Shown one piece after another: positions 489-61,580 of a stretch of 64,000 nt of DNA. Origin of the DNA: Mesostigma viride (Eukaryota; Streptophyta; Mesostigmatophyceae; Mesostigmatales; Mesostigmataceae); the NCBI GenBank assembly GCA_009746045.1, contig RPFO01000667.1, positions 686,721 to 750,720 of the forward strand, given 5' to 3'. The notes beneath the pieces are model-generated. The model worked only from the letters and a program-made list of their open reading frames with translations, was not told where the DNA came from and did not search any database. Within the stretch, counting starts at the first letter, position 1. The number at the start of each line of letters is the position of its first letter. Made by a program: the position numbers and the translations under genes.

Positions 489-3400
489 CTGCGGTCCATG
501 ATGCTCGGGCGCCTGCCGGCCGACGCAGGGTCCCTGTGCGCCGACAGCGTCATGGCCAGCAGCCGTTGCCGCGAGAACTGCTCGTGTTCCCACGCGAGCT
601 GCGGCGAGGGAGGGGACGGTGAGGGCATGGAGGAAGGGATAGTGAGGGCATGGACACGGACAGGTGGAGAAAAAGGCGGTATGTGTATGTGAACCTGACG
701 ACACACACAGGGTGCAACAACAGAGACCGGCTCGTGCTTGCACCCAAGCTGTCGTGGGAGAAGGGGCAGACAGCAAGAGACAAAGGGGGAGGGGGGGGTG
801 GCAGAATGAAAGGGGATTCGGGTTTAGTAAGGGGATTCCGTTTAATAAGGCAGAATGAAAGGGGATTCGGGTATAGTAAGGGGATTCCGTTTAATAAGGC
901 AGTATGAAAGGGGATTCGGGTTTAGTAAGGGGATTCCGTTTAATAAGGCAGAATGAAAGGGGATTCGGGTATAGTAAGGGGATTCCGTTTAATAAGGCAG
1001 TATGAAAGGGGGTCCTGGTGGCGCAACATCCCTGTTGGGGCTGCATGCTTCAAATGCAACCCACATTGCAGTGGGGGGTTTCGGCCCTATACCCTACATT
1101 CCACTTTAAACTCCATCCCCATCAACTTCCATCCCCATCAACTTCCATTCCTCTTAACAACCCTTACTCCTCTTAATGACCCTGTATTGGCCCAGGTGGC
1201 AGAATCAGTATCAACATTCATGGCACATTAGTATCAATGTAGTCTTATAACCACCCTTGCCGTCTCCGCTTCACTGCAAGCACCCACGTAGTCACCAACG
1301 AGTTGCAATCGTTTCTACGCTGGCGTTTTCCCATCGGTTCCTGCGCAGACCTGCAACTGGAGGCACAGGAGCTAAAACTAGAACGTAGTAGGCACTAAAC
1401 GTTGTCTAGCTAGCACATCGTAGGTCCTTGTCCTAATGCTGGCGTCTTCCCCTCGAGGTCCTTGTCCCCACAGGTTCCAACACGTACATTCAACTGCTAC
1501 GGTCTACCAGGGTGATCCCTCGCGTTGCTTCTCTTGCCAACACGTACGATGACCAAACAGCCAACAACGTCACCGCTACGGTCCGCGAGGGCGGGCCGAG
1601 GATTTCTGCAACTGGAGGCATGTGAGCTAAAACCAGACAAGTCCATCCTTGTTAAACTAGCACGCCCCTAGGTCCTTGTTAAACTAGCACGCCCCTAGGT
1701 CCTTGTTAAACTAGCACGCCCCTAGGTCCTTGTTAAACTAGCACGCCCCTAGGTCCTTGTTAAACTAGCACGCCCCTAGGTCCTTGTTAAACTAGCACGC
1801 CACTAGGTCCTTGTTAAACTAGCAAGCCCCTTGGTCCTTGTTGTCCCATGCCCATACAGGTGCCCATAATTTCTCTCATGGTCTAGCACTGGTGGTCTCC
1901 CATGCACGCAGATGCCAGCAAACACGACCCCCCCCCCCCCCACGCGTGCGCGCTTTACCCATCCGGTCCAGGATAGGCCTAGTCGTTATCCACGCTGCCA
2001 CCTTTGGTTTCAAAGCACTCCCTCTCCTTTGGGTCCAGCACACAGGGTCACCCAAGAGCTCACCTTTGGGGTACTTGGGCCTGAAGCCTGTACCACATGC
2101 TCACCTTTGGGTTGGGTCCAGCACACAGCATCATCCATCCCATGCGCTTGCTATATGTTATTGGAATCAAAGGGTCATCCCATTAGTACTGTCGGGTCGG
2201 GGAGACACATGACAGGGGTGACCCTCTCGCTCTGACCTCTACATTTTTAAATATATTTTTTAAAATGCGGTTTGTGTAATTTGGGACCAGGACACAGCCC
2301 TCATCTTGTGCTAAGTGTTCAGACCCGTATGTCACAGCCAAAACCACGCGCCCACCTTTGGGTCGGACATGTTGATCTTCTTGTGGACAACCTCCAGGGG
2401 GATGCCGCCCGCCTGGGCCGCGCCCGAAAAGCTCTGGCAGGGCACAGGGTAGCGTGGACGCGCAAAGTTTTTTTGGGGGTGGGTGGTTGGGGGGTGCGGG
2501 TGGGGGCGTTGTGGTGGGGTGAGTGGGGGGCATAGTGCAAATGCAGGGTAAATGTGTGTGTGTGTGTGTGTGGTGGGGGAAATTGTACAACAGAGTCAGC
2601 GTCCAATGGTTGTACGTACTAGCATCCAGTTAATATGTATTTAGAGCGCACCCCAAGGGATGCGCATGGCGAGGTGGCGCGACATGAGTGGAGGAAGGCA
2701 CCATGGCGGCCCAACATGGCATCAGCGAGGCATGAAAAGAAGACGCAGGTTAGCAAGCAGGCAAGCACGCTCGCAAGAAAGCAAGGCACTGTCTGTGGGC
2801 AAAGCAAACCAGATCAAACTCTGTCGTATGCTAGAAGCCACAATGAATAGACAGCAGCTCACGACTCCCATCATGCACAAGCAAAAGACCAAGTCACAGC
2901 CCATCCCGGCCACTACGTCATACACCAGCAAGCAAGCAAGCAAACAAGCAAGCACAAATACCAGCCACTCATGTCGTACACCAGCAAACAAGCATGAATA
3001 GGCAGCACCAATAGACAGTACGATAGGACACCAGCTCAAAACAAAGCAAAAGACCATGGCATAACCCATCCCGGCCACTCACGTCGTACACCTGCTGCAC
3101 GAACGGGTCCTTGGCCGGTTTCGAGACGTGGAGGAAAAGGCCCTGGTCGGGCTGCGGCCCCCATGAGCCCACACCCTCTAGGCACACCGCCATGTCGATG
3201 CTCTCCGTAATGCGAGCATCCGCGTTGGCCAGCCACTGCGACCAAACCGGTGGAAAGGCATCGAATGCAATGGGACCAGCCACAAAACCAAAATGGGGGG
3301 CAGGGGGCTAACGGTGAGGGGTGGCGCGCGCATCCGCGTTGGCCAGCCACTGCGCCCAAAAAGGTAGAAAAAGGCATGGTGGGCCATGGACAGCATGCCG

Positions 3401-6400
3401 CAGGTCGGACAGGGCCAAGAACGGGCTTGTCATCCATGTTGTGAAGGACCAACAACAGCTCTTCGTCCGCGTTGGATAGCCACAGGGACAGGGAGACAGG
3501 TGGCTCGTTTACGGCCTTCGCTGGTTTCCGTACTTCTTGGGGATGAGTGCATGTGGGGCGATGAAAAGCATTCCCGGTGGCGCAAAAGGTAGCACCCAGC
3601 GCAGGTGGCGCACACATCTCAACATCTAGCACACATCCAGAACTATCAATGCGATGACCAGAACTACACCAACATCTAGCACACATCCAGAACTATCCAT
3701 GCGATGACCAGAACTACACTCATAGTATGAGGAGCATGTACATATGTAATGCGGACGGCCGTGGTACGCTACTGTGATGCCGCGCCAGCCCCTGACGTGA
3801 TGCCGTCTACGAGTTATTAAATAATGCCAGCAGCGCAAACCCGAAAACCCCCAGAGTCATGCGCCCCTACCCCAAATGAGCACAACATCCTATCCATCAT
3901 GAGCACATTTCTGTTTCCCACAAAAGAGATACGCGAGCGCCCCTACCCCAAATGAGCACACACCCCTATCCATAGTGAGCACATTTCTGTTTCCTACAAA
4001 AGAGATACAAGGGCCCCCCTACCCCAAATGAGCACAACCCCCTATCCATAGTGAGCACATTTCTGCCTCCTACAAAAGAGATACAAGAGAGGTCCTACCA
4101 CGCTTGTGCCTATCACGCGCACGTACGTGGCGCAGGCCCTCGTAGTTCTGCTGGCCGCCCCCCGTGAGCAGGAAGAGCAGGTTGTGGCCGCCCCGGGTGC
4201 TGGCGTCCCGGTACAGATGCGAGAAGAGGCGCATGATCTCCAGCAGGGCCGCCACGCCGCTGCCGTTGATGTCGCTGCCCACCGCCAGGTGCTGGCAAAA
4301 ACACAGCGGACACACAGAGCAAACATAGAGTATGCATGGATTAAACACAGAGCAAACACAGAGTATGCATGGATTAAACACAGAGCAAACATAGAGTATG
4401 CATGGATTAAACACAGAGCAAACATAGAGTATGCATGGATTAAACACAGAGCAAACATAGAGTATGCATGGATTAAACACAGAGCAAACATAGAGTATGC
4501 ATGGATTACACATAGAGTAAACATAGAGTATACATGGATTAAACACAGAGCAAACATAGAGTGTGCATGGATTAAACACAGAGCAAACATAGAGTACACG
4601 TAGTATTAACACAGACCAATTAAGAGGGTTAGTAGAGGAGGGTTAGGAAAGCACAGAGGCACGGCTTATCTGCCCGCCATTACTAATGGAGAGTGTTGTG
4701 CTCGTTTCAATACTGCATACTTCCCACCAACCAGTGCTGTGCCTTCAACAGGAACAGGCGGTGGGGAAGGAAACCGGAATACAAGTTTAGCGGAAATCAA
4801 TCCAGTTGAAAACCGTCTGTGCATTAATAAGGGGCGCTGCCCACCGCCCGGTGATGTGGGTGTGAGGGAGTTTAAACAGCCGGGGGACGTCAGATGACAA
4901 GAGGCTCAAAAAGGACAAATGTAAGACGACAAAAGGTTCAAAGAGGGAAGAGGGCACGAGGTTTAAGAGAGGGTCGGGGACAAGAGGTTTGAGAGAGGGA
5001 AGAGGACAAGAGGTTTGAGAGAGGGAAGAGGAAAGAGGTTCAAAGAGGGAAGAGGGCAAGAGGTTTAAGAGAGGGAAGAGGGAAAGAGGCTCAAAAGAGG
5101 GAAGAGGGAAAGAGGTACAACTAGGAAAAAGGACAGGAGGTTCAAACAGTGAAGAGGGCAAGGCGTTCAAACCACCACCAATCCAGTTGAAACTGTTTGG
5201 CGCTGGGAACGCGGGCGCAGCCAACCACCATATGGCGGCAAAAGAAGGGGAACACGGTTGAGTGCAACGGAGAAAGGCACTGAGGGAGGAGGCAGTAGGG
5301 AATTGACGAAAACGAAAGACGCAAGGGGGAAGGTGTAAAGACTTTGAACCAGTCAAACCCAAATTATTAGATCAATGATTTGCACTTGGCCGTGAGGTGC
5401 TGTGGCATGTGACCGTGGCGGCAACCATAAACTAGGCCCTGTCAATAGCAAAAGCACGAGAAGAAAAATACTAGGTTATATAGAACGGCCTTGCTGCCCT
5501 CATCATATGCTAGTAAAGACATACTAGTGATGATAACCACAATAGGAGTGATAATAAAATCAATAATGACTGGTTAATAATAATAATGATAATGATTGAG
5601 AATAAATACTGACAGGCGCGACCCCCCACGTGTCGTAGAATGCCACCACTGCGATGGTCTTGGAGTTGGCCACGGCCATGGGGCCGTCCTTGCTGCCGAT
5701 GAGCAAGCCCTGTCGAAAACCATTTTCGGGGCAAGGAAACGAGATGAGGCAAGGGTGTGAGAGGCCCAAGATGACGGATGCCGGTGAGCAAAGCCCAGAC
5801 AATCCTCTGATGTCCCAGTTTTCGCAGGACTCATTAATTTCCGGATGAGGGCGCAGAAAAAGGAGACGAGAGGAGACAAGGCAACGAGAATAGAATGATA
5901 CGAAAAAAGAGGCGAGATGAGATTAAGGCAATGAGAATAGGATGATAAGAGAAAAGAGGCGAGAGGATTCGAGGCAACGCGACTAGGATGAAGCAAGGGT
6001 GTGAGAGGCGAGAGGTGATTGCTGCGGGTGAGCCAGCCGTGATAAAAGATGGCAACGAAAAGAGAGGTGAGAGGAGAAGTGGCATTGTACATGCTTCACC
6101 ATTCCATTTTGTACATGCTTCCATGGCTTCCCCTGATTGTTTTTACTGCCAGACATGGTTCCGTGGCTTCCCCTACTTGTTTGTACTGGCAGACATGCTT
6201 CCATGGCTTACCCTATTTGTTTGTACCGTCAGACATCTTCCTACCTGGAAGCTGTATAGCCAGGGCTTCTCCTATTTAAAACTTCCTACCCAGTGTACAG
6301 CCACAGCCCCCCTAACCTGGAAGTTGTACAGCCAGGGCTTCTCTTGCATCTTTGGCTCCGGTCCAGAGACAGAGAGCTTGTACCTGCGAAGGGGGTTGGG

Positions 6401-9400
6401 CAGCAACAACGGGCAACACAGGATGCAGAAAGGAAGGAATGAAGGGTTTTGAGCCCGTATCGCCCCTTAGTTGGAAACGGCAATGGCCAACGCCTGGATT
6501 GTGACAGGAACATGTGGCCCTTATGGCACGCTGGGTCACGGAAAAGGCACAGCGATGGATCGCGACAGCTTTTCTGCGTTGCTGCAGGATTTGTTCTTTT
6601 CTGAGATAAGGCCAAATGCTCAACGGCGAAATGCTTAGGAAAGGCCAACTGGTGGATCACCACAGGCTCAGAAAAGGCCAAAATAGTGATGGATACCGAC
6701 ATGCTTGTGTGGCCCACATGCCCCCATTATAATACCTCAATGACCAAAACAATGGAAACTTCCCTGGCGAGCTAAGAAATGGGATTGGGAACCGATGGGC
6801 TTGGCTGGTTGGTTGGTTGCAGTCGCGATAGCGGGTGACGCGTGGCAGAGTTTGCCAAAACCTTGCAGCATGCATGCTTTCACCTTGGCACTTGACCCCA
6901 CACGAGAAGACTGAGCATTCAGCTTCAGTGACTACCATAAACTGCCAAGTCCAGGCATCAACATCCCTTTCATGCCGCCGACGCAGGCAACCCGGTTCCT
7001 CTCCATTCCATTTGTCTTTTTATTGTGCGTGCACAGTGATAGAGGCAACCAGGCACCACGATCCACAATAGGCAACTCCCCCCCCCGACGCGGGCAGACG
7101 CAGGCACCCCGTCCTTCTTCTCTCCTTTGGTCTTTGTGCACAGTAGTACACAGGTAACCATGATCCACCGTGGTAATACGGATCTACATAAATATTAGGC
7201 ACGCACCCCCCTGATGCGGCCGATGCAGGCACCCCGTTGCGCTCCTCCCCCTTGATCTGCTGCAGCATCGCGTCCACGTTGTCGTCCTCGTGCACAAAGT
7301 ACACGGGAATCTGGCGACCGCAACACACACACAGACACACACACACAACACACACAGAGAGCCCACAGCATGCGTCATCCACGAGTAGAGGGGCCGTCAG
7401 AGGGAAAGGAGCAATCAGAGATGCATGAACCTTCAGAAACAGACCCATAATTTTTTTTTTGGGGGGGGGAGCATCACAGATACATAAGGTATGAATATTT
7501 GTTAGGAACGATGCCTTGGAGGGGTGACATCAGCAACAGCAACAAAAGCACGGACTTGGGAAACCCTAGAAAGCAAGTGCAGCTAGCCAACGAAACAAAG
7601 AAGTGCTACTGCAGGGAGGCAGGACTGCCGGCTACATACATAATGTATGTAATGAATATAATGTATATAATGTATATAATGCATATTCATTGAGAATTAT
7701 AAGTTACGGAGGTGAGAGGGGCATGCAACATAAGGAAAACCCGGAAAATGTATATAATGTATATAATGTCTATAATGTAATGTATACAATGTATTCTCAA
7801 CGAGCACGGAACAATGAAAGGCGCAACTCGCCCGGAAGCTGCTCCGCAGGAGAAGACTATCTAGATACTGCATAGCATCTACAAGCCGAAAACAGCTACA
7901 TAGCATGCATGCTCCATATATAGGGCGCAGCTCACCGGGATGGTGCTCCGCAGCAGAATCTCCTCCAACGCCATCGCGGCCGCCAGGTCACGCCCCCCAC
8001 CGGCGACGGCCCCGCTTCCGTCAAAGTCCCTCGGCAGCACAAACAGGAGACCCCCGATGGAGCTGGCGTTTTGTAGCAAGTCTGCCAGCCGTGGAGGGAG
8101 GCACGGTACAGCGGAGGGGAGGCGAAACAAGTGGTAGTAAGGGACACTTTACAGATCAGCGTTTAGTAGCAAGTCTGCCAGCCGTGGAGGGAGACATGTT
8201 ACGTCAGAGGCGCGCATATATTGATATTCGCATGTCAGGAGGGAGGCAAAACAAGTGGTGGCAAAGGGGGTGGCGAAGGGACACCACAAAGGCCACATGG
8301 TGCCGGAACTGGAGCGAGGCGCAAGAGAAAGAGAAGAGGCAAACATGGAGATGGGACTGGGTGTCCGGTGGTGGTATTCGACACTAGCAGGGAGGCAAGA
8401 GGACAAGGAAAAGAGGCCAGGTGCCGGATGGTGGTATTGGACACTAAGGAGGAGGCGAGAAGACAAGGATAAGAGGCCGGGTGCCGGATGGTGCCGGGTG
8501 GCGTGAGAGAGAAGGCGAAGGGCACAAAGGTCAACCTAGGGGCGAAGAAAGGGGACATTTGAAAAGAGGCCAAAAGAAGAAAGAAAGGGGGAAAAAAAGA
8601 AAAAAAGAAGACAATTCAAACGGCAGCAAAGGGACTGGACAAAGGTCAGGAGGAAAAAAAAAAAAGGTCCGGGGGGGCAGGAGAACACTGGTCATGTGAG
8701 TTGTGTGGTGGGGAAAGTACTCAGGTTGGGTCAACCATGTTACATCAACATGGGAACAAGGTCAGGCGCTGACGGTGGCGTTAAAGCAGAGGCACAGAAC
8801 TAGGGCCAATCAAGGGGAAAAGAAAGGAAACAAGCAAGCGGCCAAAGACAGACGGACGAAAGACAAGGCAAAGCCAGGCGGCAGGCCAATGCGTATACAA
8901 TCACAGCCATGACCTTTTAACCTAGTCGACTCCAGGTGCCCTAGCAATGGTTTTCCTTGACATGGGCCCTCGTGGTCCCCAAAGCATCGTTGCCAGACCT
9001 CGACGATCGCTAGGAATGTTTGCAGTAGATCTTTAGATTTCTTATTAGCACTAAATTTTTTTAAACATGGAAAACATGCGCTAGATTGCGCAAATAAAAA
9101 CATGGAAAAGGACAACTTGCCTGCAAGAGCAATCTCTGCCTCCTCCCTAACCACACAAGCCATCTACACCCCACCCTGCCCCACCCCACCCCGCCCCACC
9201 CCACCCCACCTCACCCCACCCCACCCCACCCCACCCCACCCCACCCACCCCACCCCCCCACCCCACCCCACCACCCCACCCCACCCACCCCACCCCACCC
9301 CACCCCACCCCACCCCACCCCACCGCCCAGCCCAGCCCAGCCCAGCCCAGCCCCGCCCCGCCCCGCCCCGCCCCGCCCCGCCCCGCCCCGCATCGCCCCG

Positions 9401-11954: not shown

Positions 11955-14900
11955 ATGGCTTCCGCCGTTTCCCTGTCTGGTGTTCTGTCAAGGCCATTTA
12001 CGACACGCAAAGCTGCGACGCTTAACGCCCGTCCAACCAAGCAGGTTAGTTTAAAAGTAAATGTCCATGGTGGATGATATGGTGTCCTGACCATCATATG
12101 CCATTTCAAACCTGAGGATTAACGAGCGCTTAATGAAGCACTGCTGCTGCAGGTAGATTGAAGCACCAGCCACAGTGACAAATAAAAATGCCAGGCGCGG
12201 CAATTTGGCATTAATCTTCTCGGCATTCTTTTGCACCACCTCGCACATTACACTGGTGCAGGCATCTCCATAATAATGCAAGCTTTATGCAGTTCACAAG
12301 TTTAGTTATAATCAGCTAAAGCAGATATTTTCCTATTTAAGGCAGGGCGCGCGCGTATATTCGGGCTGGATAAGCAGCCTCTCGGGTTGACTTCTCGCGA
12401 ATATCCATTATTACCAGACCAAGCAACTTCACAGCATAGCATGTACTACGTCTTGTGAATGTACACTCGTCCTCTAAAGCTTCTGAAAAGTTCGCTCTCA
12501 TAATAGGGCGGATTTATATTGCCTGCAGGCCACATGGGGGGCGTTGGCGACAGCGCTGTCGAATGCCACGTTGATCAGGCCAGCTAGCTTATAGGCCGCA
12601 CGCGTCACGTTTTCCGCATGTCACGTTTTGTCCACATTGTCATGTTTTGTTCCACGTCGTCACGTGGAGCATGCTAGCGTGGCTGGCCTCCTCATACGGA
12701 GGCTGTACACAGTTTGCACATTTCTTTTCTTTTTTTCAGCTTTAATGCTAAAATTCATCTTCCTTCTCCTGACTTTCTACGCTTTTTAAACAGGCTCGTT
12801 TATGCTTCTCTAAGAGAATTGTGTCTGCGTCATGTCACTAGCTCAACAGCCGTAGGGCCTGTTGCCATAACCTACAGTAACAGTGTGTGTGGGGGGGGGG
12901 CAGGGGGTACACGATGCTCCGTTGCTCCTGCCTTTGCATGCTGACCTCTGCTGAATTTCAAGGTTACTGCCATTTCGCCCTTGGTTCCCCCCCCCCCCCC
13001 CCCCCCCCCCTCACCCCTCACCCCTCACCCCTCACCCCTCACCCCTCACCCCTCACCCCTCACCCCTCACCCCTCACCCCTCACCCCTCACCCCTCACCC
13101 CTCACCCCTTACCCCTCATCCCGCACCCCTCACCCCTCACCCCTCACCCCTCACCCCTCACCCCTCACCCCTCACCCCTCACCCCTCACCCCTCACCCCT
13201 CACCCCTCACCCCTCACCCCTCACCCCTCACCCCTCACCCCTCACCCCTCACCCCTCACACCTCACACCTCACCCCTCACACCTCACACCTCACACCTCA
13301 CACCTCACACCTCACACCTCACACCTCACACCTCACACCTCACACCTCACACCTCACACCTCACACCTCACACCTCACACCTCACACCTCACACCTCACC
13401 CCTCACCCCTCACCCCTCACCCCTGCCCCCTGCCCCCTGCCCCCTGCCCCCTGCCCCTCCCCCTCCCCCTCCCCCCTGCCCCCTGCCCCCTGCCCCCTCC
13501 CTGTCCCCCCTCCCCCTGTCCCCTCCCCCTCCCCCTCCCCATCATTCGCCCTTTCTTCGTTTTCTTTCCCCGTTGTTGCCCTCAGCCCCTTCCCGCCCGG
13601 CGGCTCACGATGCCCAAGACCGGTGGCCGCGGCCCCGCCACCCCCGCATCGCTGCAACCCCGGAAGAGGCAGGCCAGCCACGTGACAAGCGCCAGCGCCT
13701 CCTCGGCATCTTCGGACGTGCCCCCCCAAGGCACTGATGCCAAGGTATGGCCTGAGGGTTTGTAGCTTTCATAAGCCAGTATTGGCCGGGCTAGACCTCT
13801 GTTGCTATGGGCTGGACCTCTGTTGCCATTAATTAATTAATTAAACTCGTGCTTTCGTTGCGTAGTCACGGAGCACCTGAAAGCTTTTAATCCCTGTGTG
13901 TGCACAGCGGGTAGGGGGCAGACCCCTGCCCCCCCTTCCCTCATGCCACTGGGATGCCACAGGGTGCACAATCGGACCCGTCGAAACGATCTGGCATCCC
14001 CTGTATGTGCAATAAAGCTTCGACATAGCGAAATCATAGCGGGTGCAGTAGGGCCGCCCCATGGTCCAGTGGCCACAGATAGGCGTGGAGCTCATTCAGA
14101 GGCGCCCGTTTGGGAGAATAGAACCTCTCCCGGAGCCTGACTCTGTTGCCATGGGGTAGACCTCTGTTGCCATGGGCTAGACCTCTGTTGCTATGGGGTA
14201 GACCTCTGTTGCTATGGGGTAGACCTCTGTTGCTATGGGCTAGACCTCTGTTGCCATGGGCTGGACCTCTGTTGCTATGGGCTAGACCTCTGTTGCTATG
14301 GGGTAGACCTCTGTTGCTATGGGCTGGACCTCTGTTGCTATGGGGTAGACCTCTGTTGCCATGGGCTAGACCTCTGTTGCTATGGGGTAGACCTCTGTTG
14401 CTATGGGCTGGACCTCTGTTGCTATGGGGTAGACCTCTGTTGCTATGGGCTGGACCTCTGTTGCTGTGGGGTAGACCTCTATTGCTATGGGCTGGACCTC
14501 TGTTGCTGTGGGGTAGACCTCTGTTACCATGGGCTAGACCTCTGTTGCTATGGGGTAGACCTCTGTTGCTATGCGCTGGACCTCTGTTGCTGTGGGGTAG
14601 ACCTCGGTTCGGCTACGGCTTCGCAAGCAGGCCCCTGTTGGTGGCGGGAGCATGGCAGTGGCTGGTCTTGATGGAGGCCGGGAGGAAGGACAGGGAAATG
14701 GCCAGGCTGCTATTGGCGTGCTGGCTGCTTTTTCGACCTCAATAACTGCTTTTGTTCTCTCCCAGGCAGGGATCAGGGATTGCAAACATAGCATTGGAAG
14801 GCTCGCAAGTATTTCACATGGCGCGTGTGCTATGTGGTGGTATTATGCGAGAGTACTATGCCACACGCTACCATACTATCTCTCGTATTGTGCTAGGATT

Positions 14901-17900
14901 TGTGTTCCAGTACTTTTGTGGGGGGAAGAGCCACCTGGACACTGGCGTATGCTCGGTATAGGTGTAAACTTGCACATGCGCTAGCAGTATGCGGCATGCG
15001 CATAAAGTGCCGGCACAGCAAGAAACCATGTCCACTGTGCCCCACCTGACTCACATGGTTCGTTGGCACACGTGGTTTCTTGGCTCACTTGGTTTGTTGG
15101 CTCACATGCTTGGTTCGCACACATGCTTGGTTTGCACACATGGCATGTTGGTTTCTGCTGAACCTTGGCTCCCCAGGACGGGTCGCCCCCCGCGCAGCAG
15201 GGCGGCATACTCAACTACCTCAAGGCCTACTTCCTGACAAAGAAGGTAGGGCACGGTTAGCTACCTCAAGGCCTACTTCCTGACAAAGAAGGTAGGGCAC
15301 GGTTAGCTACCTCAAGGCCTACTTCCTGACACAGAAGGTAGGGCACGGTTAGCTACCTCAAGGCCTACTTCCTGACAAAGAAGGTAGGGCACGGTTAGCT
15401 ACCTCAAGGCCTGCTTCCTGACACAGCAGGTAGGGCACGTTTAGCTACCTCAAGGCCTACTTCCTGACAAAGAAGGTAGGGCACGGTTAGCTACCTCAAG
15501 GCCTACTTCCTGACAAAGAAGGTAGGGCACGGTTAGCTACCTCAAGGCTTACTTCCTGACACAGCAGGTAGGGCACGTTTAGCTACCTCAAGGCCTGCTT
15601 CCTGACAAAGCAGTGGGGGGGCAGGAATCAGGATTGTGACTTAAGTATTTTTATACGTTATTGTGATCTGTGCTATTAGTATCTTTATCGTTATGTATAT
15701 AATATAGTATTGTAGTACCTTTGTTATACGTTACTACCGTGCTATCTTTATAATATAGTATAGTAGTACCTTTGTTATGCGCTACTACCGTGTTATATTT
15801 ATAATATAGTATAGTAGTACCTTTGTTATACGTTACTACCGTGTTATCTTTATAATATAGTATAGCAGTACCTTTGTTATATGCTACTACCGTGTTATCT
15901 TTATAATATAGTATAGTAGTACCTTTGTTATGCGCTACTACCGTGTTATCTTTTTTGTATAGTCTTTTTTGTATAGTAATACTTGTCTACCCACAAGCGT
16001 TACTGGAGGAGTGTTATAATGTGTTTCTTGCCCAGGTAGACGGTCTGCGTTGCTCCAAGGACCTTAATTGTACTCTACGCTACTCTGTATGTCATGAACG
16101 CGCGCCGCCTGCTCTGCTGCCCCACGCAGACAGTCTTGAGTCAACCGTGCTCAAGCTGTCTAACCCTAGGTTCACACGCTCCTGGTCCTTACCCACTGGT
16201 TCCTAAGATGTATGCTCACGTGACACAGTCTACGCGTCTTTTGAATCAAGTTACTCAATTAACCCTACTCCCACACACTGCGGCTCCCACCCACTGGTTC
16301 ACATGGCCCCTTTATCTATCGCCCGGACAGAGTCGATCACAGTCACATCGCTTGACCATTCTCCCCCTACTACGTGACACTTTTACTCGTACATCGGCTC
16401 ACCAACGAATAGGCACTCCTCTACGGCACTCCCTACACCTGGCCCGAGTCTGCCGCGCGCATGCAGCATAATACTAATTCACGTGCACACTCTGACCTAC
16501 TAAACATACGCCTAATACTACATGCACACCCTATACTTTAACTCTTGTAGTAGGGCTCAACACCCACTACCGCCCAGATGGAGTCGGCACACTAAACACC
16601 CACTACCTGTACACCCACTAGCTATACAACCCACTAACTATACACCCCCTAACTATAAACCCACGAACTATACACCCACTAGCCATACACCCACTAGCTA
16701 TACACCCACGAACTATACACCCACTAGCCATACACCCACTAGCTATACACCCACTAGCTATACACCCACGAACTATAAACCCACGAACTATACACCCACT
16801 AACTATACACCCACTAGCTATACACCCACTAGCTATACACCCACGAACTATACACCCCCTAACTATACACCCACTAACTATACACCCGCTTGCTATACAC
16901 CCACTAACTATACACCCACTTGCTATACACCCACGAACTAAACACCCACGAACTATACACCCACTAACTATACACCCACTAACTAAATACCCGAAACTAT
17001 ACCCACATCCAATATTGCCCAGTACGTTATACTTATGTTATATTCCCAGTACGTTATACTTATGTTATATTCCCAGTACGTTATACTTATGTTATATTCC
17101 CAGTACGTTATACCTATGTTATATTCCCAGTACGTTATACTTATGTTATATTCCCAGTACGTTATACTTATGTTATATTCCCAGTACGTTATACTGATGA
17201 TATATTCCCAGTACGTTATACTTATGTCATATTCCCAGTACGTTATACTTATGTTATATTCCCAGTACGTTATACTTATGTTATACTCCCAGTATGTTAT
17301 ACTTATGTTATATTCCCACTACGTTATATTCACGTGCACACTGTGACCCACTACATACACCCAACGCCATGCGCACACCCGCTATCGCCCAGACCGAGTC
17401 GGCCGCGCTCAAGGAGCGCATCGGCAAGCTGGGCTTGGCCGCGGTGCTGGCGTACGGGCTGGTGGACGGGCTCACCTACACGACTGCCTTCTGCATCGCG
17501 TTTGTCAGCTACGAGAAGGCGACGGGGCTCAACCCCGCGCGCAACCTGCAGGCGCTCGCGGGGGTGGGTTGGGGGAAGGGGCTGTTGAAATTATATGCTT
17601 TCTTTTTTAACGTGGTGAACAGGGGGTTTAGTGAGGGGTTAAAGGCTGCATGAAGCTTGCCTGGGTGAGGTGGTGGTGGGGCGGTGGAACAGGTTGGATG
17701 GCGTGGGTCGCGGTGGAACTGGTTGGATGGTGTGGGCAGCGGTGGACGTTCGAGCCAGGTATAGTGGAACGTGCAGGCGTGCATGGGTTCGGGCTGGGGA
17801 GGGGAGGTGGGCTGGAATAGGGTGGGGTAGAATAGAGGCACCGTGCTTCGGCTATGCGAGGCAACCCCCGTTGTAAGAAGGTGTTGGTTTCCGTACTTGT

Positions 17901-19141: not shown

Positions 19142-19489
19142 AAACACCGCATGATGCCCAACTAAATCATGTAGAAGTCTTGTTAGTCAATAAGAAAAAC
19201 TACGCACTGGTATTTCCTTTTTCATCCTTCCTTCCCTTCGACCTTCATGGATGCCAACCAGGAACAATGCGTATTCCTTGTGTTCCTGGACTTCCTTAAT
19301 GGTGCTAGAAATGAGTGGCATGCCCAAGTATAATCTTTCCAAGCGCACCTGCGCAGCATACCCTGAAATGTACTAAAACATACTATGCACTGAGACAATG
19401 TTACGGGTGGTGTTGCCATCCAGCCTAGCTTGTAATGCTGCCGTGAGCGTCCACGTCAGCTCTGCCCCATAGGTGAGGACGGGGAGGAC

Positions 19490-20275
19490 AAGAATTCTTT
19501 ACCTTGAAGAGATCCTGTTTCTCCACCATGCCCAAGGGCTGGCGCCATGCACAGCGCGCGGTAGCGCGACGCAGGGCGTGGCCTATCTGCAGGCTAATGC
19601 TCCGCGGCCTCCCTGTTCTTACGTACGGGGCCGAGACGTGGACCCTCACCGCCGATCTGGCCGGAAAGCTGGACGGCGCGGTCACCAACATGTTGCGATC
19701 CATTTTCCGAGTAGGCTATGCTGCTCATGTTCGCAATGAGGACCTGTACCTCGGCATGCCATATATCACCAGCACCATTACGCAGCGGCGCCTGCAGCTA
19801 GTAGGGCACTTAGCTCTCACCAACCAGGTAGACACCTCACGTGCCCCCCCCGCGGGGCTGCGCCCAGCTCCGCCTGTTCGGCACCTCCTTACGTGGGCCG
19901 GGCCCAGCAATGCTCGCCGCCGCAAGGCCCGCACCTTCAAAGCACAGCTAGTCGCAGACATGGGGGGCCTAGGTCTCTCCGCGAGATTTGGAACAAGATG
20001 ATGGACATGCAAGGCCAAGTGGGACCAGGTCATAGCGGACAACGACCCCCCTCCCGTGGGGAAGCGCCCGCGTGTGCAAACATACGGGAAGCATGCCAGC
20101 GATCGACAGGTCCCCTAGGGTAGAGTGCTTATAGACTAGTTGTTGTAGATAGATGCTGTAGATAGATGTTGTGGATAGATGAGACCGGTAGGACTGTTTG
20201 CGCCCATCCATCCCTCGGGCCGGTTTAATGCTCCGTGACTCCCCAACGGGAGCACGAGTCTAATTAATTAATTAA
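19490..20275 (+). mobile_element. Non-LTR retrotransposon fragment: C-terminal part of reverse transcriptase and 3' tail
   Basis: The frame at 19504-20001 contains LTYGAETWTLT, LDGAVTNMLRSIF, and ITQRRLQLVGHLA, a pattern typical of the region after the RT domain in LINE-type elements (YGAETWTL and RRLRWAGH blocks). The frame breaks near 20001 and continues in another frame to about 20120. It is followed by GTAGATAGATG repeats, a CTCCCCAACGGGAG hairpin (about 20240) and TAATTAATTAATTAA. The copy is 5' truncated and dead. It lies just downstream of the membrane protein gene. Confidence 0.82.
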
Positions 20276-32100: not shown

Positions 32101-35100
32101 AGCGGCGGCGGCGCGGGCGTGGTGTCGTCCATGACCAGCTGTTCCGGCGGACAGTAGTCGGGGTCGAGCATTGCGCGTTCTGGGATGTAGTTGACGCCCG
32201 CGCGCAGATCCACGGCAGCGCCGAGGTCGATTAGGAGCACCTGGCCCCTGGGATGGGCAGAATACGTAGTAAAGGAATAAAGGAATATAAATAAATAAAT
32301 AAACAGGGAGATAGGCTGCTCGATTCAGAAAAATTTCCATCTGATCCTCTCGTTTCCGTTTATTCTGCCCCCACACTGTATAATAGAACGGCCCCGCGCC
32401 ACCCACTCTGCCCGACTTGGGTGGCCCAGCCTTGCCCCACTCAGCCCACCTTGGCCCCACTCAGCCCACCTTGGCCCCACTTAGCCCCCACCGGGTCACT
32501 TTTCCAACAAAATACCTTTCAGGGCTGAACATCGCGGATTCGCCATGCCCTCGACCCTTGCCAGAATTGAAACAATCTCTGCCCCTCATGTATCCCAAGC
32601 CGACCACTCTCACGCGTCTTGCAACGCAACCGCTGTCACGCGCCTGGCGAGGCAACCGCTCCCCACGCCGTCCGATTCGCTCGTCGGTCACAAACAGAAG
32701 GCTGCGCGGCTTCAAGTTGTGCGGCATGGTACCTCTTGTCCCTCCATCTCTGCGACACTTGTACCTCCATACCAGTAGCCCCCCCCTACTACTTTTGGGG
32801 GTACAAGTGGCCAGTCATCCTATTACGATGCAACTACCCCGCTCCCCTCCCCGCCTCCCACCGCAACTCATGTTTTGCTCACGACCAAGTTCCAAGGCGA
32901 GATGAACGTGTGAGTTGGACATGTAAGTGTCGTGAGTGCACACCGATGCACCCCAATCTTGCCCATAGTAGTAGTACCGTCTTAAATAGTAAATAGTAAA
33001 TAGTAAATAGTAAATAGTAAATAGTAAATAGTAAATAGTAAATAGTAAATAGTAAATAGTAAATAGTAAATAGTAAATAGCAAATTTATATCCAGTGCAG
33101 TAGTACATCCACTAGTATGGTATTGCGAAGCAACAATTCTCAAGCGGACTGCAAGCATACAAAACCCACTTCTCGCCTCCTGCACTCACATGTCGGTCCC
33201 GGTGAACAAGGCGGATGGCTTCGTGACACGGGTGCACGCTTCCCTCTTTACTGCTGATGTACTATAGTACCGCCTCCACTACCCCCCCTTCCACCCCCGC
33301 ATATACTACACACATTATTACTACACCCATGATACACTCACTTGTCCGTCACGATAAAGTTGGACGGCTTGATGTCGCGGTGGACGATCCCCGTCGAGTG
33401 CAAGCGCGCGATGATGGTGAGGATGCGGCGCATGACCACGCGGACGACTTCGCGCCGGCGCCGCGTCTTGTCCTTGGGCACAAAGGGGCCCTTGAGGAAC
33501 ATGGGGACGATGTTCTCCGGGAAGTCCTTGGTGAACAGAGCGTCGATCGTCGACTCGCCCTGAAGGGGTGTAGAGGTATGGTGGGACACATCGCGGTAGG
33601 TTCATGGGGACAAAGGAGCATGGAAGTGACACAAATGTGTAGGGGGGAGGATTATGGGCAAACGAGCGCATGAGTGATGCAACGTGTACGGGGGCACGAA
33701 ACTGGAGCACGCGGACATGTTTCCAGGAATACTACGCACGGGAAGCGCTCAAATGATGCGATGCAAAGGAGCGCGGGGGTGACACAACCTGAAGGGGGGC
33801 GGTCCATGGGGGCGTGCAGATATGATCCAAACACATCTGGAAACAGGTGGCACGAGAGGCTGTGATTGGCGCAATGCGCAGGGATTCAAGCACATGACAC
33901 GATGTGCAGGGACTGGCACAAATGAAGCTATGTGCAGGGGATGAGGCGAGGCAAAGTGGCAAGGAGCTAAAGAAAGGAGTTCATCGCGCGGCTTTGCTGG
34001 GGCCATTAGCCGATAGTCCGGCTAAGCAGGGCAAGTCGTCCCTTCTTCGCAGTGCACTAGCTGGTCAGGCTAGGCAGGGCGTGTCATCCCTTCTTCGCAG
34101 TGCGCTAGCTGGTCAGGCTAGGCAGGGCGTGTCGTCCATTCTTCGCAGTGCGCTAGCTGGTTAGCTCGCAAACTCACGGATTTGTCAGCTAATTATTAGT
34201 GTAGCTCACTACCTGATAGCTCCACGCCGAGTAGAAGACACCATCCATCTCGTCGAAGCAGCCTGTCTAGCAAACCCATTGGCTAGGCAGCAAACTATTG
34301 AATAGGCGAGCTACTGAATATGCCGACTAATAGCTAGGCTAGGTACCTGGAACTTCCACGCCAGGTAGAACGCGCCATCCTTCCTGTCGGTGAAGGAGCC
34401 CAGGTAATCCGCCGAGATGCCAGGCACCCCCCGCCGCAGCCGCCGGTTCATGTAGTCCTCCACCGTGCCGGTCTCCTGCGCCTCCATGCTGCCCTTGACC
34501 TGTGGTGCGTGGGAGGGAGAAGAGAGGTGACAGCATCGGCATTAGCTTCTTTACTACTTGTACCCACCACGCCGGTCTCCTGCGCCCCCATGCTGCCAAG
34601 GCCTGCCAAGAGGTTCGCCGAATTCCTCGGAAAATACGTATTTAAGAAGTTGCACCGATTGATAGCAAAGGGGTTGCCTTGCGAAGCCCCAGCTTCTGTA
34701 GTAGACCCATCGGTCACTATACTGGTCACTACAACGCTTGGGTGGTTGCCTTGCGAAGCCGTAGGCTGATAAGAGTCATAAGACAGAAACCAGCGCCTGC
34801 CGATACCAGACAATGGGATGTACTGTTAGTACTAGTATAATATTATACTGCTACTAGTATGAAATAATACCGCTAGTATAAAAATAGTACTACGGCTACT
34901 ACTTGTATAGAATAATATTACTAGAAGTATACTATGATACCACAAGTAGTATAATATAGTACTGTATAGATAATGTTTCAGTCGTACAACATCAAATATT
35001 AATGCGATGTTGCCCAGTCCGTCTTGCGGCATTCTGCTGCCCTTGACGGTTTCGTTCTATGACGCCACCTGTCCCCCACCCCACCCCTTCGAGGATCCTA

Positions 35101-38100
35101 ATGTTGTAAAGCATGCTTATCATCCTAGTGTTGTAAAGCATAGCTTCTTAAGTATGCTAGTTATCATCCTAGTATTGTGAAGCATAACTTCTCAAGTATG
35201 CTAGTCCTTATCATCCTAGTATTGTAAAGCATAACTTCTTAAGTATGCTAGTCCTTATCATCCTAGTATTGTAAAGCATAACTTCTTTAGTATGCTAGTC
35301 CTTATCATCCTAGTATTGTAAAGCACAACTTCCTTAGTATGCTAGTTATCATCCTAGTTTTGTAAAGCATAACGTCTTTAGTGTGCTAGTCATTATCATC
35401 CAAGTATTGTAAAGCATAACGTCTTTAGTATGCTAGTCCTTCGCCCACGCACCCGCTCAACCGACATCCTTATAACCTTATTTCAAGCTTTCTTTGCAAA
35501 CTGCGGCTGCCCACACGCCTGTTTGAACTTGCGGATGGTACCACCGAAAATTTGAATTTCCGCAGCAGCAGGCTCGCGCTAGCATGGTCCGGATTCTCCA
35601 AAATTCTGGCCTGCCCTGGTTGTCTCATTCACACCATGGTCACTATAGTATAGTAATTCCATGCCCACGCTGGTTGCCCCACTGACACTAGTAGGACACT
35701 GCCGTGAGATCAGCCGTAGTGTAGTGACCACAACTTGCGATATATTTATATATTGATAGTTCCTTTTGAAGGCCTACGCTACTCGCTGCCCAGTGCCCAC
35801 TCACCCGCTTGAGGATGAACTTGGTCGGCTGCTTCTTATCCGCCGTCTCGGCCAGCGCGACCTCATACACGGTCCCAAACGAGCCCTCGCCCAACCGCCG
35901 CAGCACCTTGAGGTTCTTGGTGGCGTACCGGCGGTCCCGCAGGATGTCGGCGGCGCGGTCCAGTGGCGCCAGCAAGTAGGAGTCCAGTATACCCAGCAAC
36001 ACGCTGGGCCGCGTGGTCAGGTAGAGGGCGGCGAGCGTGCCAAGGATCGCCGTGCTGACTTGGTCGCCCTCAGGAAGGGTAGAAAAATAGCTGCGACGAG
36101 AGGGGGGGGGGGGGGGGGGGGGGTAGATGTAGTGAAATGTGTGTGTGGGGGTGTCAGGGTAAGAAGAGGCCCGCGACGAACGTGTGGGGAGGATTGAAAG
36201 GCAGGGGAAGCCACCTGGTGAGGGTTGCCTTGCAAAGCCGTAGATGTGTGTGAGAAAGGTGGAATGTTGGGGGGCGTGTATAAGCCGGATGGGGGGCGGA
36301 TGGCGTGCATGTCGGGGGGGAGAACGATACCCTAGCATGTGTGTGTGTAGTGAGGGGAATGCCAGGCATGTGTGCGTGGGTAAGGCACACATGCGTGGGT
36401 AAGGCAGAGGGGAAATAATACGACGTTACTTGTATCCTTACTACTATCTCAAACTACACAAAACTATGCTATAACTATACTGCACACCCTATCATCGTGA
36501 TATCTCAAACTAATTTATTGCCGACGGCACGGCTATCGCCATGCCTCCTAACAGTTTCTGGTTTAGGGTTTAGGGTTGGGAGCTGGGAAAGCCTCAAATT
36601 AAAGGTAGGATGCATGTGAGCTTGGGGCAGGGTAGGGGTGGGGTGGGCTGGCGGGTGGTAGGTTTGGACAGCCCGAAGCGGGTATGCGGAGGTTAGGCAG
36701 AGCCGTGTTTGCCCTTTACCAATGAGACAACCAGCGCGTATTGTTGAATGTGGTACATTTGGAAGGAAGTCGACCAGGATAGACGCTAGGAACAGTTTTT
36801 ACAAACGGTGGCCATGGCCGTGGCTGTTGTTATACTGCTAGTGTTTACTTTCCTAGAGTGACCAGAAAAGTGGCTGTAGCTGGCTCTTTTCTTCGTGAGC
36901 TTACGAAACAGGTTCTTTCGGAGGCGGGGCATGGGGACCATGGTGCTTGCAAACTTTGGGGAAAGCAGGCACGATATCAAGGAGACAACCAGTGCATATA
37001 TGTGGTTTGGCACACTCAACTAGCGCATCGGAAGTAGACCATTCACTCAACTAGCTAGCATCGGAAGTAGACCATTCACTCAACTAGCTAGCATCGGAAG
37101 TAGACCATTCACACAACTAGCGCATCGGAAGTAGACCATTCACTCAACTAGCTAGCATCGGAAGTAGACCATTCACTCAACTAGCTAGCATCGGAAGTAG
37201 ACCATTCACTCAACTAGCTAGCATCGGAAGTAGACCATTCACTCAACTAGCTAGCATCGGAAGTAGACCATTCACTCAACTAGCTAGCATCGGAAGTAGA
37301 CCATTCACTCAACTAGCTAGCATCGGAAGTAGACCATTCACTCAACTAGCTAGCATCGGAAGTAGACCATTCACTCAACTAGCTAGCATCGGAAGTAGAC
37401 CATTCACGCTGGCTTTTCTCCAGCACGCTCAAAGATAAAGATCACAGCACAACAGGCCTATGATTGAAAGACCACAGCACATTGTGTCTGTGATGGAAAG
37501 ACAACAGCAAAATATGTCTGTGATTGAAAGACAGGGTCCGCGAATACGCTCAAACTCGAAGTGGCTAGAATACGTTAAGGCAGATGGATGCAGGAGTTAG
37601 TAAGTGTGGACAGTTTCTCGAGGATAAGACAGTGTATCCAACAAGAACCAAACCCTAGCTATCTCGATAGTGTACATCTTAATTGGAAGTGGATAAGGTT
37701 GATGACAGCATGCAAAACAGCCGTCGAGCGGGCTTATCCTAAGCGTCCATACAAAGCACGTCGGCGGCAAGGGTCGAGCACAAACACTGGGGAGACAAGC
37801 ATTACCTGATATACGACTCCACGGGTTCGGCGATAACGGCAGGCACGTAATTAGCGACGGTGGAGGCTGCCCCCGTGGCGGCGTCTATAATGCTGGGTGG
37901 CAACGCACTTTGTGCCGCGCTTTGGACCTGATCCAGCAGCGCGATGGCAGGTGAGGGTCCTCTACCCTGGTTGACAGAAGGGAATGAGAAAACCGTCGGC
38001 AATCGACTTCCAAAAAGTGCAGACGCCTTGCGCGACACTGGAACAACATTCTGCCGCACTGTAGTCGCGCCCGCTACTCGTTCTAAACGGCATCCATTCC

Positions 38101-38152
38101 TTGGAGAGAGGCTAACGGCTGCTGCCGCCGCACAGCACTGCGTGCAGGCCAT
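29149..38152 (-). CDS. STN8: STN8-like thylakoid protein kinase
   Basis: In plants STN8 is the Ser/Thr kinase that phosphorylates photosystem II core proteins such as D1, D2 and CP43 on thylakoids; the Chlamydomonas counterpart is STL1. Seven exons on the minus strand: 37806-38152, 35805-36090, 34347-34499, 33342-33559, 32064-32247, 31281-31334 and 29149-29400. All are GT-AG with matching phases, giving 497 residues (Arabidopsis STN8 is similar in length). Residues 1-60 resemble a transit peptide. A membrane span lies near 128-150, followed by the glycine loop [10 protein letters not shown] (182-191), Lys210, HRDIKPSN (322-329, catalytic Asp324), DLG (342-344, in place of DFG), [16 protein letters not shown] and [14 protein letters not shown]. 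The C-terminal [12 protein letters not shown]...[12 protein letters not shown]-type end and the TRPSVL...LAPLDRA region fit STN8 better than STN7. The paired N-terminal cysteines of STN7 are not seen. It is divergent with the IREH1-like gene. Confidence 0.94.
29385..30640 (-). repeat. Triplicated exon 7 acceptor edge with an expanding purine tract
   Basis: GCGCAGCGAGGGGAGGCACA (exon 7 edge) occurs at about 29384 and 29517 and in decayed form at about 30618. Each of the first two copies is followed by a purine run and then by CATGC-GAGCAGT-ATGACA text (29452 and 30552). The repeated block therefore includes exon edge, purine tract and intron sequence. Confidence 0.88.
29547..30535. repeat. 1-kb (GGAA)n/(GGGA)n purine tract
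   Basis: About 80 bp of GGAA units followed by about 900 bp of GGGA units with occasional GGA, AGAA and GCA interruptions. It is pyrimidine-rich on the STN8 sense strand and lies in its last intron. It is a mirror-repeat-rich sequence capable of forming triplex DNA. The Gly/Arg/Glu and Pro/Ser-only frames are artefacts. Confidence 0.97.
31497..31610 (-). repeat. Echo of the STN8 exon 6 acceptor edge
   Basis: GGGATGCTTCAGCTGTTC at 31323-31340 recurs at 31499-31516. Over about 110 bp more of intron text is also shared (TATGAT-GGTTT-GTC-A-CAT pattern at 31428-31450 and 31588-31610). A weaker third version is near 31740-31790. Confidence 0.85.
32684..32730 (-). repeat. Distant echo of the STN8 catalytic-loop exon
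   Basis: Read on the minus strand this segment encodes [14 protein letters not shown], resembling [13 protein letters not shown] at the end of exon 4. The donor GT is lost. It lies inside intron 4. Confidence 0.6.
32984..33082. repeat. (AAATAGT)n heptamer repeat, about 13 copies
   Basis: Nearly perfect 7-bp units in STN8 intron 4, between the two exon 4 echoes. Confidence 0.95.
33183..33235 (-). repeat. Near echo of the STN8 exon 4 donor edge
   Basis: On the minus strand it reads [12 protein letters not shown] followed by a GTGAGTG donor, against [12 protein letters not shown] and GTGAGTG at the real exon end (33335-33380). One extra codon is present and the frame is kept. Confidence 0.78.
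34015..34165. repeat. 48-bp tandem repeat, about 3 copies
   Basis: Units contain CTAGCTGGTCAGGCTAGGCA and CCCTTCTTCGCAGTGC. Located in STN8 intron 3. Confidence 0.88.
34208..34262 (-). repeat. Frame-preserving echo of the STN8 exon 3 donor edge
   Basis: On the minus strand the echo encodes [14 protein letters not shown] followed by a GTAGTG donor. The real exon end at 34343-34390 encodes [14 protein letters not shown] followed by GTACCT. Nine of 14 residues are the same and there is no frameshift. Confidence 0.88.
34567..34610 (-). repeat. Echo of the STN8 exon 3 acceptor edge
   Basis: CCGGTCTCCTGCGCCCCCAT (34573) copies CCGGTCTCCTGCGCCTCCAT (34468) of exon 3. Translated on the minus strand it gives [12 protein letters not shown] against [12 protein letters not shown]. 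It lies in intron 2, upstream of the real acceptor. Confidence 0.88.
35090..35445. repeat. Tandem repeat of 47-49 bp, about 7 copies
   Basis: Units of TATCATCCTAGTATTGTAAA with CATAACTTCTTTAGTATGC in STN8 intron 2. Confidence 0.92.
37017..37410. repeat. 33-bp tandem repeat, about 12 copies
   Basis: Units of CATCGGAAGTAGACCATTCA plus CTCAACTAGCTAG, nearly identical, in STN8 intron 1 about 400 bp from exon 1. The stretch 36100-37017 of the same intron has a G run at about 36102-36122 and no coding sequence. Confidence 0.95.

Positions 38153-39580: not shown

Positions 39581-61580
<22,000 letters not shown>

What the first reader, a model, noticed from the sequence alone, without database searches (positions are those of the whole stretch)
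489..61580. Exon-edge echoes: introns of all four genes contain repeated, decaying copies of their own exon borders
In at least 20 exon borders, the exon edge plus its splice site recurs one to eight times in the neighbouring intron. Donor echoes always lie downstream of the real donor and acceptor echoes upstream of the real acceptor, so the functional site is the outermost copy. Copies range from near-identical to barely visible. Some still encode similar residues in frame and keep GT or AG. This is not ordinary transposon insertion, because each border echoes its own sequence. I infer repeated local tandem duplication across splice junctions, which lengthens introns without harming the protein. 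Tandem duplication across splice sites is a known idea for intron gain, but a genome-wide intron-growth process of this kind would be new to me.
Basis: partly seen in the sequence, partly recalled or inferred. Interest (0 to 1): 0.93.

Follow-up and report, generated by a model that had tools for sequence, protein, structure and literature searches.

The report
Introns built from exon-edge copies
In this stretch of a eukaryotic (green-alga-like) genome, many introns hold decayed tandem copies of their own exon borders, which suggests that these introns grew by repeated local duplication across splice sites while the outermost, original splice site stayed in use.

Summary
Confirmed and far above chance. 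I modelled four genes (33 introns, 66 borders). With exon-only 40-mers, 29 of 66 edges match their own intron at p<=0.01 against shuffles; the intron's reverse complement gives 1 of 66. At score >=16, 23 of 66 edges match their own intron and 0 of 2112 edge/foreign-intron pairs do. Junction-spanning queries find echoes at 42 of 66 borders; 5 of 66 pass in reverse.

The anatomy fits tandem duplication with decay: the nearest exon-bearing echo lies 89-152 bp away at 24 of 39 borders, all 36 strong echoes reach the junction, and mismatches are even over codon positions.

Two facts exceed plain 'random duplication plus selection'. Units take little exon (1 of 36 above 60 nt; 18 expected). Local duplication is common in introns but near background between genes.

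Copy identity does not fall with distance. Tandem duplication is a known route to new introns, and a boundary-crossing case is described; pervasive growth of existing introns this way did not turn up in ten literature searches. Genome-wide extent, relatives and species remain untested.

The parts
489..8081 (-). Gene 1, nicalin/nicastrin-like (name recalled), 8 exons found, incomplete: 7936-8081, 7207-7310, 6317-6383, 5614-5709, 4127-4291, 3083-3235, 2356-2433, 489-598
   Evidence: exon 2 end corrected; Pfam Peptidase_M28 2e-7 above cut-off, Nicastrin 4.3e-4 below cut-off
11955..17653 (+). Gene 2, small protein, plastid-type by eye, 4 exons: 11955-12044, 13586-13744, 15177-15245, 17393-17653
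   Evidence: open frame; no Pfam match
29149..38152 (-). Gene 3, STN7/Stt7-like kinase, 7 exons: 37806-38152, 35805-36090, 34347-34499, 33342-33559, 32064-32247, 31281-31334, 29149-29400
   Evidence: open frame; MsStt7d 4ix3 E 1.8e-35
42922..61580 (+). Gene 4, protein kinase (IREH/MAST-like, name recalled), 18 exons found, 5' end incomplete, one frame break inside exon 12
   Evidence: PF00069 1.7e-66
15246..15613 (+). Least decayed case: 46-bp unit (about 31 nt exon end + 15 nt intron start) repeated head-to-tail directly behind the donor at 15245
   Evidence: (15215-15610, 8.6 copies, 95%)
7820..7854 (-). Donor echo, gene 1 intron 1
   Evidence: score 23, id 0.83, 23 nt exon
6953..7133 (-). 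Two donor echoes, gene 1 intron 2 (7069-7133, 6953-7017)
   Evidence: id 0.75 and 0.74, 52 nt exon each
6222..6271 (-). Donor echo, gene 1 intron 3
   Evidence: id 0.80
3326..3503 (-). Two acceptor echoes, gene 1 intron 5 (3326-3389, 3466-3503)
   Evidence: id 0.81 and 0.74
2879..2985 (-). Two donor echoes, gene 1 intron 6
   Evidence: id 0.87 and 0.75
34564..34597 (-). Acceptor echo, gene 3 intron 2
   Evidence: id 0.91, reaches 40 nt into the exon sequence
34194..34263 (-). Donor echo, gene 3 intron 3
   Evidence: id 0.70, 54 nt exon
33168..33244 (-). Donor echo, gene 3 intron 4
   Evidence: id 0.68, 51 nt exon
31489..31534 (-). Acceptor echo, gene 3 intron 5
   Evidence: id 0.80
29517..29575 (-). 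Acceptor echo, gene 3 intron 6, 137 bp upstream of the last exon's acceptor; a further decayed copy near 30640 seen by eye only
   Evidence: id 0.86
43307..43336 (+). Donor echo, gene 4 intron 1
   Evidence: id 0.83
44765..45128 (+). Five scored donor echoes, gene 4 intron 2
   Evidence: id 0.70 to 1.00
46462..46624 (+). Two donor echoes, gene 4 intron 4
   Evidence: id 0.81 and 0.79
49105..49441 (+). Three donor echoes, gene 4 intron 6
   Evidence: id 0.80, 0.87, 0.70
51159..51220 (+). Acceptor echo, gene 4 intron 7
   Evidence: id 0.73, 56 nt exon
51610..51901 (+). Three donor echoes, gene 4 intron 8
   Evidence: id 0.69, 0.81, 0.77
52039..52222 (+). Two acceptor echoes, gene 4 intron 8 (52039-52117, 52162-52222)
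   Evidence: id 0.72 and 0.80
52489..52682 (+). Two donor echoes, gene 4 intron 9 (52489-52519, 52623-52682)
   Evidence: id 0.91 and 0.68
53013..53169 (+). Two acceptor echoes, gene 4 intron 9
   Evidence: id 0.68 and 0.79
53484..53631 (+). Two donor echoes, gene 4 intron 10
   Evidence: id 0.76 and 0.69
54452..54934 (+). Three acceptor echoes, gene 4 intron 11, of an exon edge inside the kinase domain
   Evidence: id 0.77, 0.73, 0.76
58370..59096 (+). Four donor echoes, gene 4 intron 15
   Evidence: id 0.72 to 0.82
59804..59953 (+). Two donor echoes, gene 4 intron 16, behind a 42-bp array
   Evidence: id 0.86 and 0.75
60548..60608 (+). Donor echo, gene 4 intron 17
   Evidence: id 0.77
61041..61344 (+). 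Three acceptor echoes, gene 4 intron 17
   Evidence: id 0.72 to 0.79

Best explanation
These introns have grown by repeated local tandem duplication of units of about 100 bp (scored lags 36-339 bp). When a unit spans a splice junction, the exon edge and the splice site are duplicated with it. Purifying selection on the protein and on splicing keeps the outermost, original site in use, so the inner copy becomes intron and decays as non-coding DNA. Shown here: own-intron, same-strand, junction-including copies with non-coding decay. Inferred: that selection picks the outermost site, and that the duplications come from ordinary DNA processes such as replication slippage, template switching or unequal exchange. 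The short exon share is probably a splicing filter (inferred): a copy that carried more exon would carry enough exonic signal to compete with the true site.
For: Own intron only: 23 of 66 own versus 0 of 2112 foreign pairs at score >=16. Same strand only: 29 of 66 forward, 1 of 66 reverse at p<=0.01. All 36 strong echoes reach the junction although up to 200 nt of exon were offered, as a contiguous duplication requires. Units filled head to tail at 13 of 25 scored borders, and serial offsets such as 101/204, 94/233/381, 106/216. Mismatches in the exon part are nearly even over codon positions, 115/677, 131/677, 133/665, and like the aligned intron part, 293/1456: echoes decay as non-coding DNA. 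At fixed lengths over 69 echoes the exon part keeps 0.76 identity and the intron part 0.64 (random places 0.54 and 0.57), as expected if only the echo drifts in the exon part but both copies drift in the intron part. Echoed edges are conserved protein (gene 3 against MsStt7d; gene 4 kinase domain), so the copy went from exon to intron.
Against: Random breakpoints predict about 18 of 36 exon shares above 60 nt; 1 of 36 is seen, so a filter or a mechanism must be added. Sequence between genes shows little local duplication (2.3% of 1047 windows against 16.2% of 1614 in introns), which a genome-wide slippage process does not predict; the sample is small. Identity does not decline with distance (rho -0.01, p 0.95; nearest copy better in 12 and worse in 7 of 20 multi-echo borders), only score does (rho -0.40, p 0.0007), so stepwise outward growth is not shown. 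12 of 25 scored self-matches do not fill the unit. Intron-part homology of the echoes is weak (>=0.60 identity in 46 of 69, random 29 of 69). Exon third positions diverge hardly more than first and second, which needs constrained synonymous sites.
Confidence: 0.75

Rival explanations
1. A sharper version, not exclusive of the best explanation: the duplication process is tied to transcribed, spliced DNA or aimed at exon-intron junctions (for example by R-loops, or by breaks at the edge of exon-positioned nucleosomes), so introns grow preferentially from their ends.
For: Border-spanning windows have the highest local-copy rate: 28.5% of 256 at score >=18, against 12.8% of 109 just inside the border, 11% of 1890 in introns, 1.1% of 373 in exon cores and 2% of 1928 between genes (unmasked windows). 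Exon share mostly within 56 nt (35 of 36). Near-match pairs: 39 exon-intron, from short edges, against 38 intron-intron and 15 intergenic.
Against: Exon edges hardly drift, so their echoes stay detectable longer than intron-intron pairs; this alone inflates the border rate. Intron interiors duplicate too, and 35% of intron bases lie in masked arrays. No direct mechanistic evidence.
Confidence: 0.3
2. Dispersed templated insertions: break repair copies nearby pieces, exon edges included, into introns, not head to tail.
For: 12 of the 29 scored self-matches have 36-292 bp of other sequence between the copies. Behind 15245 the exon copies look as if separated by a 15-nt filler (by eye).
Against: Exon-core pieces without a junction would be tolerated in introns but are absent among the 36 strong echoes; strong near-side bias (donor 14 of 33 near, 0 of 33 far).
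Confidence: 0.08
3. [quoted passage not shown]
For: Also a tandem duplication at splice sites.
Against: That model puts the upstream exon end at the 3' end of the intron and the downstream exon start at its 5' end: 0 of 33 in the last 150 nt and 0 of 33 in the first 150 nt. Old events could have decayed.
Confidence: 0.02
4. The reverse direction: splice sites slid into intron repeat arrays, so exon edges were made from intron repeats.
For: Some introns hold minisatellite arrays that touch the border.
Against: Echoed edges lie in conserved protein that aligns without insertions there.
Confidence: 0.03
5. Echoes are functional: alternative or decoy splice sites, or mutually exclusive exon edges, kept by selection.
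For: GT kept in 27 of 36 junction-spanning donor echoes (23.3 expected from their identity).
Against: AG kept in 13 of 27 (16.3 expected); no codon-position bias; offsets modulo 3 are 20, 28, 22.
Confidence: 0.03
6. Chance, low complexity or assembly artefact.
For: 35% of intron bases lie in tandem arrays; 6 of 66 swapped introns score in the self-alignment control; 5 of 66 reverse controls pass.
Against: 0 of 2112 foreign pairs at score >=16; scored exon-bearing echoes are mostly 0.65-0.91 identical, not assembly duplicates.
Confidence: 0.01

Closest known systems
[quoted passage not shown]
   Same: Tandem duplication near splice sites; local, same-strand copies.
   Different: There an exon piece is duplicated and a NEW intron appears; here existing introns lengthen and the copies lie at their own border, not the opposite one.
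Potato RdRp duplication across an intron-exon boundary (PMC4974935, abstract and outline read)
   Same: A tandem duplication crosses an intron-exon boundary and carries splicing signals along.
   Different: A single case that made a new intron; here dozens of borders in four genes, outermost site apparently kept, copies decayed.
Near intron pairs and intron sliding in Drosophila (PMC2891723, passages read)
   Same: Duplication or competing splice sites near a junction.
   Different: The intron position changes there; here no change of position is needed.
Introner elements (Amoebophrya, with Micromonas cited; PMC7789003, passages read)
   Same: Repeats at intron borders in protists.
   Different: Introners are alike BETWEEN introns and carry short direct and inverted repeats; here exon edges echo only in their own intron (0 of 2112 foreign pairs at >=16).
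Intronic minisatellites / VNTRs (recalled)
   Same: Tandem arrays in introns.
   Different: Ordinary arrays are not defined by carrying the exon edge and splice site in the unit.

Membership tests
[quoted passage not shown]
   0 of 33 in the last 150 nt, 0 of 33 in the far half, score >=14
[quoted passage not shown]
   0 of 33 in the first 150 nt; 4 of 33 somewhere in the far half
Introner elements | Sequence shared between different introns of the genome | tested here: inconclusive
   Exon-edge matches are to the own intron, 23 of 66, and 0 of 2112 foreign pairs at >=16; whole introns were not compared with each other
Tandem duplication across a splice junction | Copies in direct orientation | tested here: met
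   29 of 66 forward, 1 of 66 reverse at p<=0.01
Tandem duplication across a splice junction | Copied stretch includes the junction | tested here: met
   36 of 36 strong echoes reach the junction to within 10 nt
Tandem duplication across a splice junction | Copies contiguous head to tail | tested here: inconclusive
   13 of 25 scored borders fill the unit; the others are decayed or spaced
Tandem duplication across a splice junction | Absent at the same place in a relative (empty site) | not testable with these tools
   No eukaryotic comparison genome found; the genome search did not complete
Alternative or mutually exclusive exon edges | Copies under coding constraint | tested here: not met
   Mismatch 0.170, 0.194, 0.200 at codon positions 1-3

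The most novel reading that the evidence does not exclude
A standing, gene-specific growth process: introns lengthen by duplication that starts at or near their own splice junctions (exon-side breakpoint mostly within about 56 nt, unit about 100 bp), tied to transcription, splicing or the chromatin of exons, so that each intron is a fossil record of its own borders. It would be a general, previously unnamed route to long introns in this lineage.
Probability: 0.3. Interest if true: 0.87.

Novelty: new variant of a known kind. Interest (0 to 1): 0.7.

Why it matters
How introns get longer is far less understood than how they arise. Here the exon half of each duplicated unit can still be compared with a conserved original, so intron growth leaves a readable record: unit size, breakpoint positions, relative age and decay can be measured border by border in one genome. 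If it holds genome-wide, it offers a direct test of whether intron growth is neutral mutation filtered by splicing or a process tied to transcription and splice junctions. The short exon share also points to a measurable limit on how much exon a duplicate splice site may carry before it competes with the real one.

Tried and rejected
Intron gain by AGGT duplication: wrong ends of the intron (0 of 33 and 0 of 33). Introner-type sharing of exon-edge matches between introns: 0 of 2112 foreign pairs at score >=16. Coding or alternative-exon function: no codon-position or frame signal. Selection on echo GT/AG: 27 of 36 against 23.3 expected and 13 of 27 against 16.3 expected, no clear signal. Age gradient ('tree rings'): not seen in identity. 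The exon-versus-intron decay ratio fits a clock only roughly. The self-alignment first lacked a control; one search added one and showed 6 of 66 swapped and 5 of 132 shuffled introns scoring as well. The lag spectrum has no correction for the longer visibility of exon-intron pairs.

Species: not identified. Cymbomonas and Haematococcus papers were looked at by passage (PMC5741210, PMC10675990, PMC7617258) and Chlamydomonas (PMC8226300); the passages describe nothing like this.

Literature: ten searches in an open-licence library; none listed a paper on systematic lengthening of existing introns by junction-spanning duplication. Subscription journals and preprints are mostly not in it, so a prior report may exist. 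Papers seen: passages of PMC3443670, PMC2891723, PMC7789003, PMC5741210, PMC10675990, PMC7617258, PMC8226300; abstract and outline of PMC4974935 and PMC8469720; the others as listings only.

Full report
What was checked. The window is eukaryotic nuclear DNA; the species is not known to me. I read the gene regions and built models by hand for four genes that join in frame with GT-AG introns: a nicalin/nicastrin-like gene (-, 489-8081, incomplete), a small plastid-type gene (+, 11955-17653), an STN7/Stt7-like kinase (-, 29149-38152) and a large kinase (+, 42922-61580, 5' incomplete). One exon end was corrected by 1 nt. Support: STN7 against MsStt7d E 1.8e-35; kinase PF00069 1.7e-66 and Peptidase_M28 2e-7. 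This gives 33 introns and 66 borders. The large kinase has a frame break in exon 12 within a G-rich run. No RNA evidence was available.

Using only exon bases, so that splice consensus cannot help, 29 of 66 edges match their own intron at p<=0.01 against dinucleotide shuffles, and 29 of 66 against pieces of other introns; the reverse complement gives 1 of 66 and 0 of 66. Own against foreign introns at score >=16: 23 of 66 against 0 of 2112. With junction-spanning queries 42 of 66 borders have echoes, 103 in all, and 5 of 66 reverse controls pass. Of these, 70 echoes at 39 borders carry at least 8 nt of exon. 24 of 66 borders show none.

Anatomy. The nearest exon-bearing echo lies 89-152 bp from its junction at 24 of 39 borders; offsets under about 40 bp were not searched, because the first 40 intron bases were masked. 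Further echoes often follow at about twice or three times that distance. Self-alignment scores at 29 of 66 borders, 25 of them with at least 8 nt of exon, and 13 of those fill at least 95% of the lag, i.e. stand head to tail; controls score in 5 of 132 shuffled and 6 of 66 swapped introns. The clearest case is a 46-bp unit behind the donor at 15245, repeated about eight times.

Exon share. With up to 200 nt of exon offered, all 36 strong echoes reach the junction, and they extend 11-76 nt into the exon (median 30; 1 of 36 above 60, 18.2 expected if breakpoints were random). In the position profile, donor-side 30-nt windows centred 45, 60, 75 and 90 nt inside the exon have 0 hits (of 32, 29, 25 and 21 unmasked), against 41% of 32 at 15 nt; on the acceptor side 42% of 33 at 15 nt, 10% of 31 at 45 nt and 0 of 27 at 60 nt. 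Absence of exon-core pieces argues for contiguous duplication rather than scattered insertion: a scattered exon-core copy in an intron would be harmless. The cap on exon share is not explained by that and needs a filter or a mechanism.

Where duplication happens. Same-strand local copies at score >=18 (unmasked 40-mers): 28.5% of 256 border-spanning, 12.8% of 109 just inside borders, 11% of 1890 intronic, 2% of 1928 intergenic, 1.1% of 373 exon-core; reverse-strand 0 to 0.9%. Counting all intronic windows, masked arrays included, 54% of 3320 have a same-strand local relative at score >=14, against 7% on the reverse strand. Away from borders by more than 80 nt, introns still exceed intergenic DNA (16.2% of 1614 against 2.3% of 1047 at score >=16; block bootstrap difference 0.094-0.182). 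So local direct duplication is a property of introns here, not only of borders. Border rates are inflated because exon edges are conserved and their echoes stay recognisable longer. My 'intergenic' class may contain unfound exons and introns, and a TE-rich part was set apart (17.7-25.5k, 3.7% of 695).

Fate of the copies. Mismatches in the exon part are almost even over codon positions (115/677, 131/677, 133/665) and like the aligned intron part (293/1456). At fixed lengths, 69 echoes keep 0.76 identity in the exon part and 0.64 in the intron part; random places give 0.54 and 0.57; the intron part is >=0.60 in 46 of 69 against 29 of 69 at random. This fits one-copy drift against two-copy drift, but the intron-side signal is weak. 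GT is kept in 27 of 36 (23.3 expected) and AG in 13 of 27 (16.3 expected): no sign of use, at most a hint against decoy AGs. Offsets modulo 3 are 20, 28, 22. Identity does not fall with distance (rho -0.01), score does (rho -0.40): the order of ages is unresolved, and array turnover may blur it.

Interpretation. Best supported: repeated local tandem duplication in introns, including across junctions, with the outermost splice site kept by selection on protein and splicing. That direction (exon to intron) follows from conservation of the echoed edges. 'Outermost copy' is then expected and is not itself evidence for a special mechanism. Open: whether the process is aimed at junctions or transcription-linked. 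The short exon share and the intron/intergenic contrast lean that way; the detection bias and the small window argue for caution. These two readings overlap, so their odds do not add up to one.

Known work. Tandem duplication as a source of NEW introns is established (PMC3443670, passages), and a potato duplication crosses an intron-exon boundary (PMC4974935, abstract). The far-end signature of the AGGT model is absent (0 of 33 and 0 of 33). Introners differ in being shared between introns (PMC7789003, passages). In ten searches of an open-licence library no paper on systematic growth of existing introns by junction-spanning duplication was listed.

Noticed in passing
window 26925-26949 and 57020-57044 (+), 31614-31638 (+): An identical 25-mer occurs between genes and in intron 13 of gene 4, with a 3-mismatch copy in gene 3; neighbouring sequence around 26590 and 56975 also looks shared in opposite orientation (by eye), so probably a transposable element in the intron.
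   Followed up: partly
window 154-173, 34672-34691, 34744-34763, 36223-36242 (-), 17847-17866 (+): A dispersed 20-mer (TACGGCTTYGCAAGGCAACC) occurs five times with up to 3 mismatches, chance mean 0.01; no hit of a 21-mer version in viral contigs.
   Followed up: partly
window 19477-20114 and 21749-25437: Long open frames that look like retroelement pieces by eye; the one tested, near 19.5 kb, had no Pfam match.
   Followed up: partly
window 41350-41650 (+): Probable further upstream exon of gene 4: an open frame rich in P and S ends at a GT site (by eye).
   Followed up: no
window 55250-55400 (+): Frame break in exon 12 of gene 4 within a G-rich run, perhaps a base-calling error or a tiny intron (two stops in the joined frame).
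   Followed up: no
window 29555-30518, 9169-9863, 13007-13537, 49838-50514, 41978-42313: Very long short-unit arrays (4-16 bp units), in introns and between genes.
   Followed up: no
window, exon parts of echoes: Third codon positions of exon edges differ from their echoes hardly more than first and second (0.200 against 0.170 and 0.194), which suggests constrained synonymous sites near junctions.
   Followed up: no
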